A stretch of DNA of 64,000 nucleotides, taken from contig CP007628.2 of assembly GCA_000688775.2 (NCBI GenBank), positions 1,612,001 through 1,676,000 of the forward strand, given 5' to 3'. The translations under genes and the position numbers were made by a program. Positions 6,014-12,382 of this stretch are shown here, one piece after another. Under the pieces are notes generated by a model. The model ran no database searches. It saw only the letters and a program-made list of their open reading frames with translations, and was not told where the DNA came from. This stretch comes from Streptococcus sp. VT 162. GTDB taxonomy: Bacteria; Bacillota; Bacilli; Lactobacillales; Streptococcaceae. The number at the start of each line of letters is the position of its first letter. Positions within the stretch are counted from its first letter, which is position 1.

Positions 6014-9000
6014 TTAGTCTTCTTTTCGTTTTGTCGTAAGAACAGCAGCAGATAAAGCGATACTCACACTTGCTAAGAAGAGGGCTACTTCTGAGCTGTG
6101 CTCCCCTGTAGCAGGTAGTTTTTCTTCATCTTTCGCTCCCGGAGTTTTGGTCTCAGCTACTGGACTTGGAGTGAGCGGGTACTCAGGTTTTTCAACTGTT
6201 GGAGCTGCTTGATCTCCAGCTGTAGCCAATACACCTGTGTAGGCTGGCTTTTCATTTACCAAGGCCTCAACTGCATTGACTCCACCTCTATACTCTGGAA
6301 CTTCATTTGCAGCCGCTAGGACCGCATTGGCTCCGCCTTTGTATTCTGGTAATTCGTGAACCAAGGCTTCAACCGCATTAACGCCGCCTTTGAACTCAGG
6401 GACTTCATGTACAGCTGCTTCTGTTGCATTGACGCCGCCTTTGAACTCAGGTACATCAAGAACTGGTGGTTGTTCTTCACCCTTGCTACTTGTTGGAGCA
6501 TCTGGTTTCGTAGCAGAATCTTTTAATTGGTTGAGATAGTCTGCGAAGTAGGCCACCATTCTTTCCGTCAAGAGATGGTTATCCGTCGCATATTTCATGC
6601 TCGCCTGAACTCCAGCTACTTCCTCTTGATTGTCTTTGTCTGTTAATTTCTGCGCCTTAGCCAAAGCTGCTTCATAGCCAGACATGTCAAGAGGTGTTTC
6701 TGCTACTTGTGGACGGGTAAAGATGAGTTCCGCTGCAGATTGGTATTTATCGCCACCATCTCCGTAAGTCTTGGTACCAGTAAGGACAATTTTCTTAGCC
6801 TTGATTGTCTTGCCAAAGTCAATGTCTTTTGGCTTGTTGTTATTTGGCCAATCTGTTACGTTAAAGGTATGTTCCTTACCAGACTCATCTGTGACAACCA
6901 GTTTCACATCACGCAAGTTTCCATTTGAATCAGAGGCACGTGGAACATAGCGAAGTCCAGTGATTTCAGTTGGTTCTTTCAAGACCATGGTTGCAGGCTT
7001 GCCTACATCTCCACCATTCCAAGATGTATGCCATAGGCTAGATACATTACCATCAAAGGCATTCTCAAGACCTTCACCTGGTTGAGCTGGCGCATCCAAA
7101 CTTTCAAAGTCTTCTGCTACCAGAGCTGTTTTCTTCTGAACCAAAGCATTCTTCAAGGCTTCAATCTTGGCAATCTCTGCACGCGCTTCTTCCACGCTAA
7201 TGTCATCATCTGCCTGACTGAGGTTAAAGACCGCCTCTTTCAAAGCATCCATAGACTCTTTCGTATAGTTGGTCATGGTAACCGTTGGCAAGTAGTTCTT
7301 CAGAGCATTTTCTGTCAACATCTTACCTGTTAGGGTAATTTCCTCGATGTGAAGATTGTCCATCATGAAGTCGTTATAACCACGGAAGTTTGCATTTCCA
7401 CCAGAATCACCACGAGTATTGCTTGCATTTCCAGTTGAGTAGATACCTACCCAAGTATCGCCTGTTTCTGCACCTGTCACGAGGAAGGTTACTTTCTTGG
7501 CTTTCTTAGAATCTGTCCAAGTATTTGGCAATTCATGCATTTCCAAGTTGCTTGCTTGACTACCACGACGACCTGACTGGAATTCTCCCTTACCGACTAC
7601 AAAGGCATAGGTATTGTCTGATCCTGCTTCGTATTCAAAAGTTACACGATAAGTCTTACCTGCCTCAAAGCGGAAGTTTTGCGGAATAGTTTGGTAAACC
7701 AAGTTACGACGGCTCACTAGTCCATTTGTCTTCAATGACCAATTTCCTTCGATAACATCATCGACTTTCTTACCATTCCAACCACGCTGTGTATATGGAT
7801 CGTGTTTTTCAGACAAGTGAGTGCGGTTGTCTTCGACACCTTCGACACCGCCCACTACAAATGGGAAGATTCCTTGAGCTACATTTTCAAAGTCTTGTTT
7901 GAAGGTTCCTTGACCTGTATCATGCTTGTCTCCGTACATGCTTGAATTGTTTTCAAAGGTACGAATTTCATCAAAGTAAGTTGCTTCATCACCAGCTTCA
8001 CGACTCAATGTCAGAGTGACATTTGATACGTCAGATCCAGTTGTAAAGAAGGCGTACATATTTTGGAAGTAACTTGTATCGTCAACTGTAGCATTTTCAC
8101 GACGATTGTTATGAGCATAAGCTTTGATATAGTTGAGAGCGAGTGACTTATTGGTATAAGTAGTCACTTCTTTTTCGCCAGTATTCACTGTGATACTTGC
8201 CTTAGCATTACTACGGTTATCGACACCAACATAAACCGCATACTTGGTATTTGGTTTCAAGCCAGTCAGTTTCTGAGTAAGGCTGACCTTGCTCTTATTG
8301 CCTTGGATACGAAGCATATCGTTTGCACCCTGTGATTTGACAATTTCTGCCTTGGAAGCATCACCTGAAATGGTCCAGTGTTTCAAGGTTCCGCTGTTAA
8401 ATCCTTGGTCGTAGATGTGCATGCCTTCGCTCCATGACATTTCAGGATTGGTTTGTTTTGAACGGTAAAGAACGTATGGTTGATTTGCTAGAAGGTCTAG
8501 GGTAATCTTGCCATCTTTTACAGTTAGTTCTTGCTCTTCTGTTTTACCTTGGTCAGTTAGCTTGTAAAGGTAAACCTTGCTATTTGCCCAATCACTCGGA
8601 AGGGTCCAAGTTGTTGCACCGGCCTGCGTATTGAAGTAGTACATCTTTTCCTTTTCAGTAGGAAGTTTCTTACCATTTGCATCCCAGTTCCAAGGAGTCA
8701 AGTAAGCTGAACCATCTTGGATGACACGTCCATTGAGCGTTACTGTACGTTCGCGGTATTGCGGGCTATTGACATCGTTTGACTTACGAGTCACAACAAC
8801 CTTGTTACCTGCTGCATCGACTAGCTCAACCTTCATTTCTGGAGTCCATTTATAGGTGCTACCATTATCGGTCATGGTAACTGGTGTACCATTTTCCCAT
8901 TTACTTACAGTGAAGTGTTGGAAGTACTTAGTCATGACGTCATGGGCAAAGAGGTTAGTCACGTAGCCATTGTAGTCGCTTCGTCCTTGCCAGCCTTCAA

Positions 9001-12000: not shown

Positions 12001-12382
12001 ATTGATCCTTGTTAACTTCGCGCCCATTGTCTTCAGCTTTCTCCAACTTATCTTCTAATTCTTTTGGCAGATTGCTTGGCTTTTCAGACTTTTCTTTTTC
12101 TTGAGCCAACAACTCTTCTTCTGTTTGTGGGCCTTCAGTAGTCTCAGCTGAACCAGGATTCTGAGCGGCAGCTTCCTTGTCAAAATCGTGCCCCTCATCA
12201 CTAGCCTTCTTATCCAAATCAGCTAGTTCACTCGGCAAATTATCTGTTGAACCAACTCTTGCTTGATCTGCTAAGACTGGAGCAGCAGCAAAGAAAGTCG
12301 CCCCAATCATTACCGAAGCTACTCCAAGCGTAAACTTACGAATACTGAACTTACAGCGTTTTTCAAAAAATCGTTTATCCAT
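6014..12382 (-). CDS. Cell-wall-anchored serine protease / GH101 endo-alpha-N-acetylgalactosaminidase fusion
   Basis: 2122 residues. The signal peptide is of YSIRK type (KFSIRK at 11-16), with likely cleavage near residue 38. Residues about 145-350 form a trypsin/V8-like serine protease domain with a visible triad: H178 (LTVSHNF), D235 (KNDLALVRL) and S306 (PGASGGGV). After a Lys/Glu/Pro-rich linker comes a full GH101 enzyme, which releases the core-1 disaccharide Gal-beta1,3-GalNAc from Ser/Thr of mucin-type glycoproteins. D1028 (IYVDVWGNG) fits the nucleophile and E1060 (FAIEWGHGGEYD) the acid/base; the 32-residue spacing matches that of the pneumococcal enzyme. Carbohydrate-binding and discoidin-like modules follow (around 1500-1900), then four 17-residue repeats and an LPATG anchor (2089-2093) with hydrophobic segment and basic tail. 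The pneumococcal GH101 protein (about 1770 residues) lacks the protease as far as I recall. Location next to the aliA remnant matches the pneumococcal neighbourhood. A cre site and strong promoter precede it. Confidence 0.93.
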   Translation of the reverse strand: MDKRFFEKRCKFSIRKFTLGVASVMIGATFFAAAPVLADQARVGSTDNLPSELADLDKKASDEGHDFDKEAAAQNPGSAETTEGPQTEEELLAQEKEKSEKPSNLPKELEDKLEKAEDNGREVNKDQLAQDTGKLVPEDVAKTTNGELNYGATVKIKTPSGEGSGIVVAKDLVLTVSHNFIKDSQDGNIRKVVDNDQGDGDIYSISYPGLPDVKFSKKDIIHWDREGYLKGFKNDLALVRLRTVLENTPVEVTKKPVVKKIGDKLHVFGYPEGKLNPIVNTTVDFAEPYGEGVQGIGYQGGKPGASGGGVFDTEGKLVGVHQNGVVGKRSGGILFSPAQLKWIQDHIQGISSVKPADLEEKEKPAEEKPKEDKPAAAKPETPKTVIPEWQTVANKEQQGTVTIREEKGIRYNQLSSTAQNDNDGKPALFEKQGLTVDANGNATVDLTFKDDSEKGKSRFGVFLKFKDTKNNVFVGYDQGGWFWEYKTPGNSTWYKGNRVAAPVNGSVNHLTISLKSDGQLNATNNDVKLFDTVTLPAAVNENLKNEKKILLKAGTYSNDRTVVSVKTDNQEGVKADDTPVEKEKGDIVDDSKVSYDTIQSTVLKAVIDQAFPRVKEYTLNGHTLPGQVQQLKKILVNNHEITPEVTYKKINDTTAEYLMKLRDEKNFINADMTVRLQVVDNQLHFDVTKIVNHNQVTPGQKIDDERKLLSSINFLGNSLVSVSSDQTGAKFDGATMSNNTHISGDEHIAVTNPMKDLSKGYMYGFVSTDKLAAGVWSNSQNSYGGGSNDWTRLTAFKQTVGNTNYVGIQSSEWQWEKAYKGIVFPEYTKEFPSAKVVITEDANADNKVDWQDGAIAYRSIMNNPQGWEKVKDITAYRIAMNFGSQAQNPFLMTLDGIKKINLHTDGLGQGVLLKGYGSEGHDSGHLNYADIGKRIGGVEDFKTLIEKAKKYGAHLGIHVNASETYPESKYFNENILRKNPDGSYSYGWNWLDQGINIDAAYDLAHGRLARWEDLKKKLGDGLDFIYVDVWGNGQSGDNGAWATHVLAKEINKQGWRFAIEWGHGGEYDSTFQHWAADLTYGGYTNKGINSAITRFIRNHQKDSWVGDYRSYGGAANYPLLGGYSMKDFEGWQGRSDYNGYVTNLFAHDVMTKYFQHFTVSKWENGTPVTMTDNGSTYKWTPEMKVELVDAAGNKVVVTRKSNDVNSPQYRERTVTLNGRVIQDGSAYLTPWNWDANGKKLPTEKEKMYYFNTQAGATTWTLPSDWANSKVYLYKLTDQGKTEEQELTVKDGKITLDLLANQPYVLYRSKQTNPEMSWSEGMHIYDQGFNSGTLKHWTISGDASKAEIVKSQGANDMLRIQGNKSKVSLTQKLTGLKPNTKYAVYVGVDNRSNAKASITVNTGEKEVTTYTNKSLALNYIKAYAHNNRRENATVDDTSYFQNMYAFFTTGSDVSNVTLTLSREAGDEATYFDEIRTFENNSSMYGDKHDTGQGTFKQDFENVAQGIFPFVVGGVEGVEDNRTHLSEKHDPYTQRGWNGKKVDDVIEGNWSLKTNGLVSRRNLVYQTIPQNFRFEAGKTYRVTFEYEAGSDNTYAFVVGKGEFQSGRRGSQASNLEMHELPNTWTDSKKAKKVTFLVTGAETGDTWVGIYSTGNASNTRGDSGGNANFRGYNDFMMDNLHIEEITLTGKMLTENALKNYLPTVTMTNYTKESMDALKEAVFNLSQADDDISVEEARAEIAKIEALKNALVQKKTALVAEDFESLDAPAQPGEGLENAFDGNVSSLWHTSWNGGDVGKPATMVLKEPTEITGLRYVPRASDSNGNLRDVKLVVTDESGKEHTFNVTDWPNNNKPKDIDFGKTIKAKKIVLTGTKTYGDGGDKYQSAAELIFTRPQVAETPLDMSGYEAALAKAQKLTDKDNQEEVAGVQASMKYATDNHLLTERMVAYFADYLNQLKDSATKPDAPTSSKGEEQPPVLDVPEFKGGVNATEAAVHEVPEFKGGVNAVEALVHELPEYKGGANAVLAAANEVPEYRGGVNAVEALVNEKPAYTGVLATAGDQAAPTVEKPEYPLTPSPVAETKTPGAKDEEKLPATGEHSSEVALFLASVSIALSAAVLTTKRKED
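6251..6454 (-). repeat. Four tandem 51-bp coding repeats near the LPXTG anchor
   Basis: Residues 1977-2044 of the GH101 protein are four 17-residue units of the form xPE(F/Y)KGGVNAxEAxVHE, with a decayed fifth unit (KPAYTG) after them. Such units sit between the enzyme modules and the sorting signal and probably act as a wall-spanning stalk. Exact in-frame 51-bp repeats can expand or contract by recombination. Confidence 0.85.

What the first reader, a model, noticed from the sequence alone, without database searches (positions are those of the whole stretch)
6014..12382. Serine protease fused to a GH101 mucin O-glycanase on one wall-anchored chain
The protein has a complete His178/Asp235/Ser306 protease domain in front of a complete GH101 enzyme. 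GH101 strips core-1 O-glycans from mucin; an attached protease could cut the freshly exposed peptide, coupling deglycosylation to proteolysis. It could instead process the protein itself or its neighbours. The pneumococcal homologue is, to my knowledge, without this domain.
Basis: partly seen in the sequence, partly recalled or inferred. Interest (0 to 1): 0.75.

Follow-up and report, generated by a model that had tools for sequence, protein, structure and literature searches.

The report
Protease module on mucin-stripping surface enzymes
Many mouth and throat streptococci carry a conserved serine-protease module in front of several wall-bound enzymes that act on host mucin-type glycoproteins; here it sits on the enzyme that removes whole sugar chains, and its job is still unproven.

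Summary
Window 6014-12382 (-) encodes a 2122-aa YSIRK/LPATG surface protein with a trypsin-fold domain (residues 148-352; His178, Asp235, Ser306) before a complete GH101 endo-alpha-N-acetylgalactosaminidase. The domain is S1B-type; its nearest solved relative is the accessory domain of the Gemella M26 IgA1 protease, which showed no activity in published tests. The fusion is neither unique nor unreported: 62 of 94 GH101-bearing Streptococcus genomes have it in one frame, and a 2025 figure legend reports it in commensals. What I add: the same module sits on four other surface architectures (GH29, GH33, M26, tandem-protease proteins); 131 of 131 near-full fetched copies (100 distinct sequences) keep the triad and a fourth His; its dN/dS is 0.053; the pneumococcal form looks like an in-frame deletion. 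Best reading: a catalytically competent, probably latent protease module working beside enzymes that attack O-glycoproteins. Coupled mucin proteolysis is plausible but unproven; an inactive relic is disfavoured.

The parts
6014..12382 (-). whole gene, 2122-aa protease-GH101 surface protein
   Evidence: NCBIfam NF040533 endo_SpGH101 4199.9 bits over 1-1957
12266..12382 (-). YSIRK-type signal region (aa 1-39)
   Evidence: Pfam PF04650 at aa 7-31, TIGR01168 at aa 1-39
11942..12262 (-). Glu-rich N-terminal linker (aa 41-147), whose end (aa 135-147) is well kept and runs into the protease domain
   Evidence: Glu 16.8% of aa 41-147; column identities
11327..11941 (-). S1B-type trypsin-fold protease domain (aa 148-352)
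11849..11851 (-). catalytic His178
   Evidence: kept in 131 of 131 near-full copies
11678..11680 (-). catalytic Asp235
   Evidence: kept in 131 of 131 near-full copies
11465..11467 (-). catalytic Ser306
   Evidence: kept in 131 of 131 near-full copies
11420..11422 (-). His321, proposed S1-pocket His (assignment recalled from glutamyl endopeptidases)
   Evidence: kept in 131 of 131 near-full copies
11219..11326 (-). Glu/Lys/Pro-rich linker (aa 353-388)
   Evidence: the pneumococcal junction lies between this linker and the N-terminal one
10673..11218 (-). GH101_N domain (aa 389-570)
   Evidence: PF17995
9833..10591 (-). galactose-mutarotase-like domain (aa 598-850)
   Evidence: PF18080
8960..9832 (-). 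GH101 catalytic domain (aa 851-1141)
   Evidence: PF12905, 406 bits, full profile
8540..8944 (-). GH101 beta-sandwich domain (aa 1147-1281)
   Evidence: PF17451
7973..8416 (-). GH101 domain 5 (aa 1323-1470)
   Evidence: PF21466
7379..7972 (-). galactose-binding-like domain (aa 1471-1668)
   Evidence: PF17974
6728..7078 (-). F5/8 type C (CBM32-type) domain (aa 1769-1885)
   Evidence: PF00754
6320..6421 (-). SIALI-17 repeat, best of 3 stretches (aa 1988-2021)
   Evidence: NF043031
6104..6118 (-). LPATG sorting motif (aa 2089-2093)
   Evidence: PF00746

Best explanation
The segment is a catalytically competent S1B-type (glutamyl endopeptidase-like) serine-protease module. It lies N-terminal to a wall-anchored GH101 O-glycanase and is probably made as a latent proenzyme. 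Related copies are joined to several other surface enzymes that act on sialylated or fucosylated glycoproteins and IgA1, with few fusion events. Its most likely role is local proteolysis next to the partner enzyme: cutting host glycoprotein peptide at or near stretches freed of sugar, once the N-terminal side of the module has been trimmed. Shown here: fold, triad, conservation, selection, partner set, and absence from the pneumococcal form. Inferred: activity, specificity for acidic residues, N-terminal activation, and the host substrate.
Against: GhTrp, 35% identical over the structural alignment, showed no activity on chromogenic peptides or a peptide library and has a blocked S1 pocket (PMC11970125, parts 1-2 of 3), and had no effect on IgA1 cleavage (PMC9637739, passages). 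Five residues before the catalytic Ser, where glutamyl endopeptidases have Ser/Thr (recalled), only 65 of 100 distinct copies have Ser/Thr; the window has Gly, like 13 of 40 GH101 and 3 of 3 M26 sequences, and first tandem copies have Ala (18 of 19) (a profile column had given 108 of 131). So acidic specificity is weak for this very protein. No [IV]I[NQ]GG segment was found in GH101 (0 of 62), M26 (0 of 4) or second tandem copies (0 of 20). No substrate evidence exists. The module also occurs on tandem-protease proteins in which Pfam finds no glycosidase (L064, L070, L203).
Confidence: 0.5

Rival explanations
1. The module acts on the bacterium's own surface: it cuts its own Glu-rich linkers or neighbouring wall proteins, so maturing or releasing them, with no role in host mucin proteolysis.
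For: Linkers on both sides are Glu-rich: 16.8% and 22.2% Glu, against 3.9% in the domain and 5.2% in the GH101 core. The module also occurs on proteins in which Pfam finds no glycosidase, with LPXTG or choline-binding ends.
Against: Glu-rich linkers also precede GH101 in proteins without the module (e.g. L134, by eye), so they need not be cleavage sites. Acidic specificity is itself inferred. The anchor is C-terminal, so cutting these linkers would not release GH101 from the wall.
Confidence: 0.25
2. The module has lost proteolysis and serves as a binding or structural domain on a trypsin scaffold.
For: No activity found for GhTrp and an occluded S1 pocket. The authors of PMC11970125 left this possibility open. 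GH101 exists without the domain in 40 of 80 named GH101 loci kept.
Against: 131 of 131 near-full copies keep His, Asp, Ser and the fourth His, which a pure scaffold would not need; dN/dS is as low as in folded GH101 accessory domains.
Confidence: 0.15
3. Annotation accident: an assembly or frame artefact joins two genes.
For: One genome (G131) has the two parts in separate frames and one (G123) has stops in the domain.
Against: 62 of 94 GH101 genomes have one open frame over both parts; the 120 protein clusters listed (of 1691 hits) have both Pfam domains.
Confidence: 0.01

Closest known systems
[quoted passage not shown]
   Different: Partner is a metalloprotease, not GH101; the domain lies deeper in the chain (residues 684-896); loop 2 is one residue shorter in the alignment.
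SpGH101 of Streptococcus pneumoniae (PDB 3ecq, R6)
   Same: GH101 core, GH101_N and part of the N-terminal sequence before the junction align.
   Different: Lacks the protease domain; the two linkers meet directly. That 3ecq is strain R6 is recalled.
S1B-domain SpGH101 and ZmpA of commensal streptococci (PMC12211801, Fig. 2 legend)
   Same: [quoted passage not shown] this puts the fusion in print.
   Different: In the passages seen there was no activity test and no evolutionary analysis of it; the words fucosidase and sialidase do not occur in its main text.
Glutamyl endopeptidases (V8, Esp, Bacillus intermedius enzyme; PDB 1wcz, 4jcn, 1p3c) and exfoliative toxins
   Different: About 17-24% identity; those are secreted single-domain proteins (recalled), this is one module of a wall-anchored chain.

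Membership tests
S1B-type (glutamyl endopeptidase-like) serine protease | chymotrypsin fold | tested here: met
   [not shown]
S1B-type (glutamyl endopeptidase-like) serine protease | His-Asp-Ser triad | tested here: met
   H178, D235, S306; 131 of 131 near-full copies
S1B-type (glutamyl endopeptidase-like) serine protease | S1-pocket His and Ser/Thr five residues before the Ser (assignment recalled) | tested here: inconclusive
   His321 in 131 of 131 copies; five before the Ser: Ser/Thr in 65 of 100 distinct sequences, Gly in the window; not compared residue by residue with V8
S1B-type (glutamyl endopeptidase-like) serine protease | cleavage after Glu/Asp | not testable with these tools
   no assay; GhTrp inactive in published tests
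GH101 endo-alpha-N-acetylgalactosaminidase | full GH101 catalytic and accessory modules | tested here: met
   PF12905 272 of 272 positions plus PF17995, PF18080, PF17451, PF21466, PF17974; NF040533
GH101 endo-alpha-N-acetylgalactosaminidase | release of core-1 O-glycan | not testable with these tools
   inferred from close homology to 3ecq
Sortase-anchored surface protein | YSIRK signal and C-terminal LPXTG with hydrophobic tail | tested here: met
GhTrp-like accessory domain of M26 IgA1 proteases | closest sequence and fold match to GhTrp | tested here: met
GhTrp-like accessory domain of M26 IgA1 proteases | attached to an M26 enzyme | tested here: not met
   no M26 domain in the window protein; partner is GH101

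The most novel reading that the evidence does not exclude
Mitis-group streptococci use a shared 'plug-in' latent S1B protease on a whole set of surface enzymes (O-glycanase, fucosidase, sialidase, IgA1 protease). The plug-in is activated by N-terminal trimming and cuts host O-glycoprotein peptide in step with sugar removal, giving a tethered mucin-dismantling system that commensals keep and the pneumococcal O-glycanase has dropped.
Probability: 0.25. Interest if true: 0.75.

Novelty: new member of a known kind. Interest (0 to 1): 0.45.

Why it matters
If the module is active, sugar stripping and peptide cutting of mucins would be joined on one wall-tethered chain, and one activation step could govern several enzymes. 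The partner list turns the open question about GhTrp ('what does the trypsin-like domain do?') into a testable one across the GH101, GH29, GH33 and M26 contexts. The contrast with the pneumococcal form bears on commensal-pathogen differences in mucus handling.

Tried and rejected
Rejected: frame or assembly artefact (62 of 94 open fusions; 120 of 120 listed clusters). Rejected: a fusion unique to this genome. In the 29 GH101 genomes without an adjacent domain, the profile found only weak matches (about 21-44 bits, most in frames of about 400 aa, which I take for HtrA without having checked), apart from the strong copy in G158. Led nowhere: paper searches for GH101 or the enzyme's name with trypsin-like or serine-protease domain found 0 papers; searches listed nothing on the fusion by title or abstract start; PMC11861894, PMC12687362 and PMC10900908 held nothing on it in the passages shown. 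The careful tree did not finish; the quick one is used, with its long-branch warnings, and it leaves the GH29 copies in two blocks beside the first tandem copies, so one origin for GH29 is not shown. Glu-rich linkers as proof of self-cleavage: not used, because GH101 proteins without the domain have them too. Promoter-like sites were no more than chance (10 against 13.3); terminator-like sites 12 against 6.3. Limits of lists: one search scored only the 7992 candidates sharing most words and lists 120 of 625 hits; one search lists 120 of 1691; one search kept 80 of 183 matches; one search cut its match list. The 131 copies come from loci L062-L082, L093-L154 and L173-L228, not from every locus fetched, and include genes fetched twice. 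Five rows were dropped for not covering profile positions 30-180: the second tandem copy of L207 and the two pieces of the broken G123 copy, each fetched twice.
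Full report
Observation. The ORF at 6014-12382 (-) is real: 2122 aa from ATG. Pfam finds a YSIRK signal, Trypsin_2 (163-320), GH101 modules (389-1668, catalytic model matched in full), an F5/8C domain and the anchor. NCBIfam adds SIALI-17 repeats and the family model NF040533 (endo_SpGH101), which aligns residues 1-1957 with its positions 1-1961 of 1962, so the curated family model appears to span the protease stretch.

What is known of GhTrp. In the parts read (1 and 2 of 3) of PMC11970125, no activity was found on chromogenic peptides or a peptide library, loop 2 blocks the S1 pocket, and a proenzyme needing N-terminal cleavage is proposed, with loss of proteolysis as the stated alternative. 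Passages of PMC9637739 say the domain did not contribute to IgA1 cleavage. In the alignment the window shares most of the active-site loop and the loop after the fourth His with GhTrp, so inactivity of the isolated domain would not be surprising here either.

How common the fusion is. Of 284 Streptococcus species genomes searched, 94 have GH101 and 77 have the domain at E <= 1e-10. Of the 94 GH101 genes, 62 have the domain in the same open frame, 29 have no strong domain match beside them, and 3 have it outside an intact frame: G131 in two frames, G123 with stops, G209 beside a run of N (the N run is seen). A profile search of those 29 genomes matched 28, with weak matches mostly in frames of about 400 aa, plus one strong copy in G158 that lies on an M26 protease. 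Of 80 named GH101 loci kept out of 183 matches, 39 have the domain in the GH101 frame (one of them, L097, with the domain broken by a stop), 1 (L129) has it in a neighbouring frame, and 40 have none. Records with it are labelled S. oralis, mitis, pseudopneumoniae, infantis, taonis, shenyangsis and unnamed Streptococcus; records without it include S. cristatus, sinensis, suis, uberis, gallolyticus, Granulicatella, Abiotrophia, Enterococcus, Aerococcus and Erysipelothrix. The 120 protein clusters listed, of 1691 hits with this domain, all have both Pfam families. In 395 genomes of the order, 32 match the profile at E <= 1e-12; 7 of these are outside the genus, with at most 74 bits and frames of 245-575 aa.

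The same module on other enzymes. A second copy lies in the window's own genome, on a GH29 fucosidase with a CBM32-type domain. Related loci show it on a GH33 sialidase protein that carries two copies in tandem (L065), on tandem-copy proteins ending in choline-binding repeats (L064) or LPXTG (L070), on M26 IgA1 proteases (L068, L069), and on one chain with both GH29 and GH33 (L189). I collected 131 near-full copies, 100 of them distinct in sequence: 59 GH101, 22 GH29, 6 GH33, 4 M26, 1 GH29+GH33 and 39 whose open frame held none of the four reference enzymes. Those 39 are mostly tandem proteins, plus three GH101-derived copies in split frames or at N runs and one GH29-like copy. His178, Asp235, Ser306 and His321 are kept in 131 of 131. 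The copies are related, some genes were fetched twice, and I chose the loci, so this is a conservation count and not an independent sample.

Selection and history. Across 48 unique fused GH101 proteins (47 if only their first 1500 aa are compared), dN/dS (Nei-Gojobori, ratio of means, pairs with dS 0.02-1.2, 356-840 pairs by region) is 0.053 for the protease, 0.062 for GH101_N, 0.041 for the mutarotase-like domain, 0.070 for GalBD, 0.063 for the F5/8C domain, 0.019 for the GH101 catalytic domain, and 0.173 and 0.211 for the linkers. In a quick maximum-likelihood tree of 100 copies the GH101 copies form one group (support 99), as do the 3 M26 copies; the GH33-protein copies nest inside the first and the second tandem copies; GH29 copies fall in two blocks next to the first tandem copies with the join unresolved. 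The labels need 8 changes, the least possible for 9 groups. The tree warns of long branches and is not the careful one. It fits few fusion events and long co-inheritance with each partner.

The pneumococcal form. In the 3ecq protein the N-terminal stretch up to the first Glu/Lys-rich linker and the part from the second linker on align, with the protease absent between them. G158 has the same junction. In a search from that form, 19 of 120 listed clusters (of 625 hits) lack Trypsin_2; the 8 of these with a source name are all S. pneumoniae, and the other 101 have the domain. Because close relatives have the domain and its linker remnants flank the junction, in-frame loss between similar Glu/Lys-coding stretches is the simpler reading; this is inference.

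How it may work. GhTrp's proposed need for N-terminal trimming fits two patterns found here. GH29-type copies (23 of 24) and first tandem copies (21 of 21) carry a [IV]I[NQ]GGxD[LI] segment 52-57 residues before the catalytic His; in tandem proteins it follows an apparent signal-peptide end, so that copy may be born trimmed. In the GH101 set, which has no such segment, Leu128 lies 50 residues before His178 and is kept in all 48, with an acidic residue at 126 in 98% and the stretch 135-154 mostly constant. I infer a latent protease. Against an acidic specificity in this protein: five residues before the Ser it has Gly, where 65 of 100 distinct copies have Ser/Thr. The partners act on sugars or peptide of mucin-type glycoproteins (established knowledge of GH101, GH29, GH33 and M26 families; M26 cuts the IgA1 hinge), so host O-glycoprotein is the most economical common substrate. 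Self- or neighbour-processing is the main rival, and tandem-protease proteins without a detected glycosidase favour it somewhat.

Known versus new. The fusion is in print: PMC12211801 states that SpGH101 and ZmpA of commensal strains have an extra S1B catalytic domain, and describes a choline-binding protein with a trypsin-like domain (passages seen). In the library searched, searches showed me no other report of the GH101 fusion and none of the fucosidase or sialidase fusions; I opened only some of the papers they listed, and most subscription papers and preprints are not held. What I add is the partner set, the conservation and selection, the tree and the pneumococcal junction.

Noticed in passing
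window 3-5903 (-): The next gene, running off the window start, encodes another YSIRK surface glycosidase with GH20, GH84 (NAGidase) and CBM32-type domains, so two giant glycan-degrading surface proteins lie side by side.
   Followed up: partly
L062:2093-7003 (-), own genome: The own-genome GH29 fucosidase with the same protease module ends at 1636 aa with no LPXTG, while 19 of the 23 fetched GH29 frames (some fetched twice) are 1919-2434 aa with an anchor motif.
   Followed up: no
L126:1768-11319 (+): In S. cristatus (L126, Pfam-checked) the slot in front of GH101 holds a GH33 sialidase in place of the protease; L124 (S. cristatus) and L128 (S. sinensis) have a similar sequence there.
   Followed up: partly
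L189:3-7748 (-): One chain carries protease module, GH29 fucosidase and GH33 sialidase.
   Followed up: no
L133:3517-10335 (+): A Streptococcus sp. (CSL10205-OR2) GH101 protein has two GH101_N domains.
   Followed up: no
L072:5667-12164 (+), genome G158: G158 (unnamed), whose GH101 has the pneumococcal-type junction, carries the module on an M26 protease, although PMC11970125 describes the S. pneumoniae IgA1 protease subfamily as lacking it.
   Followed up: no
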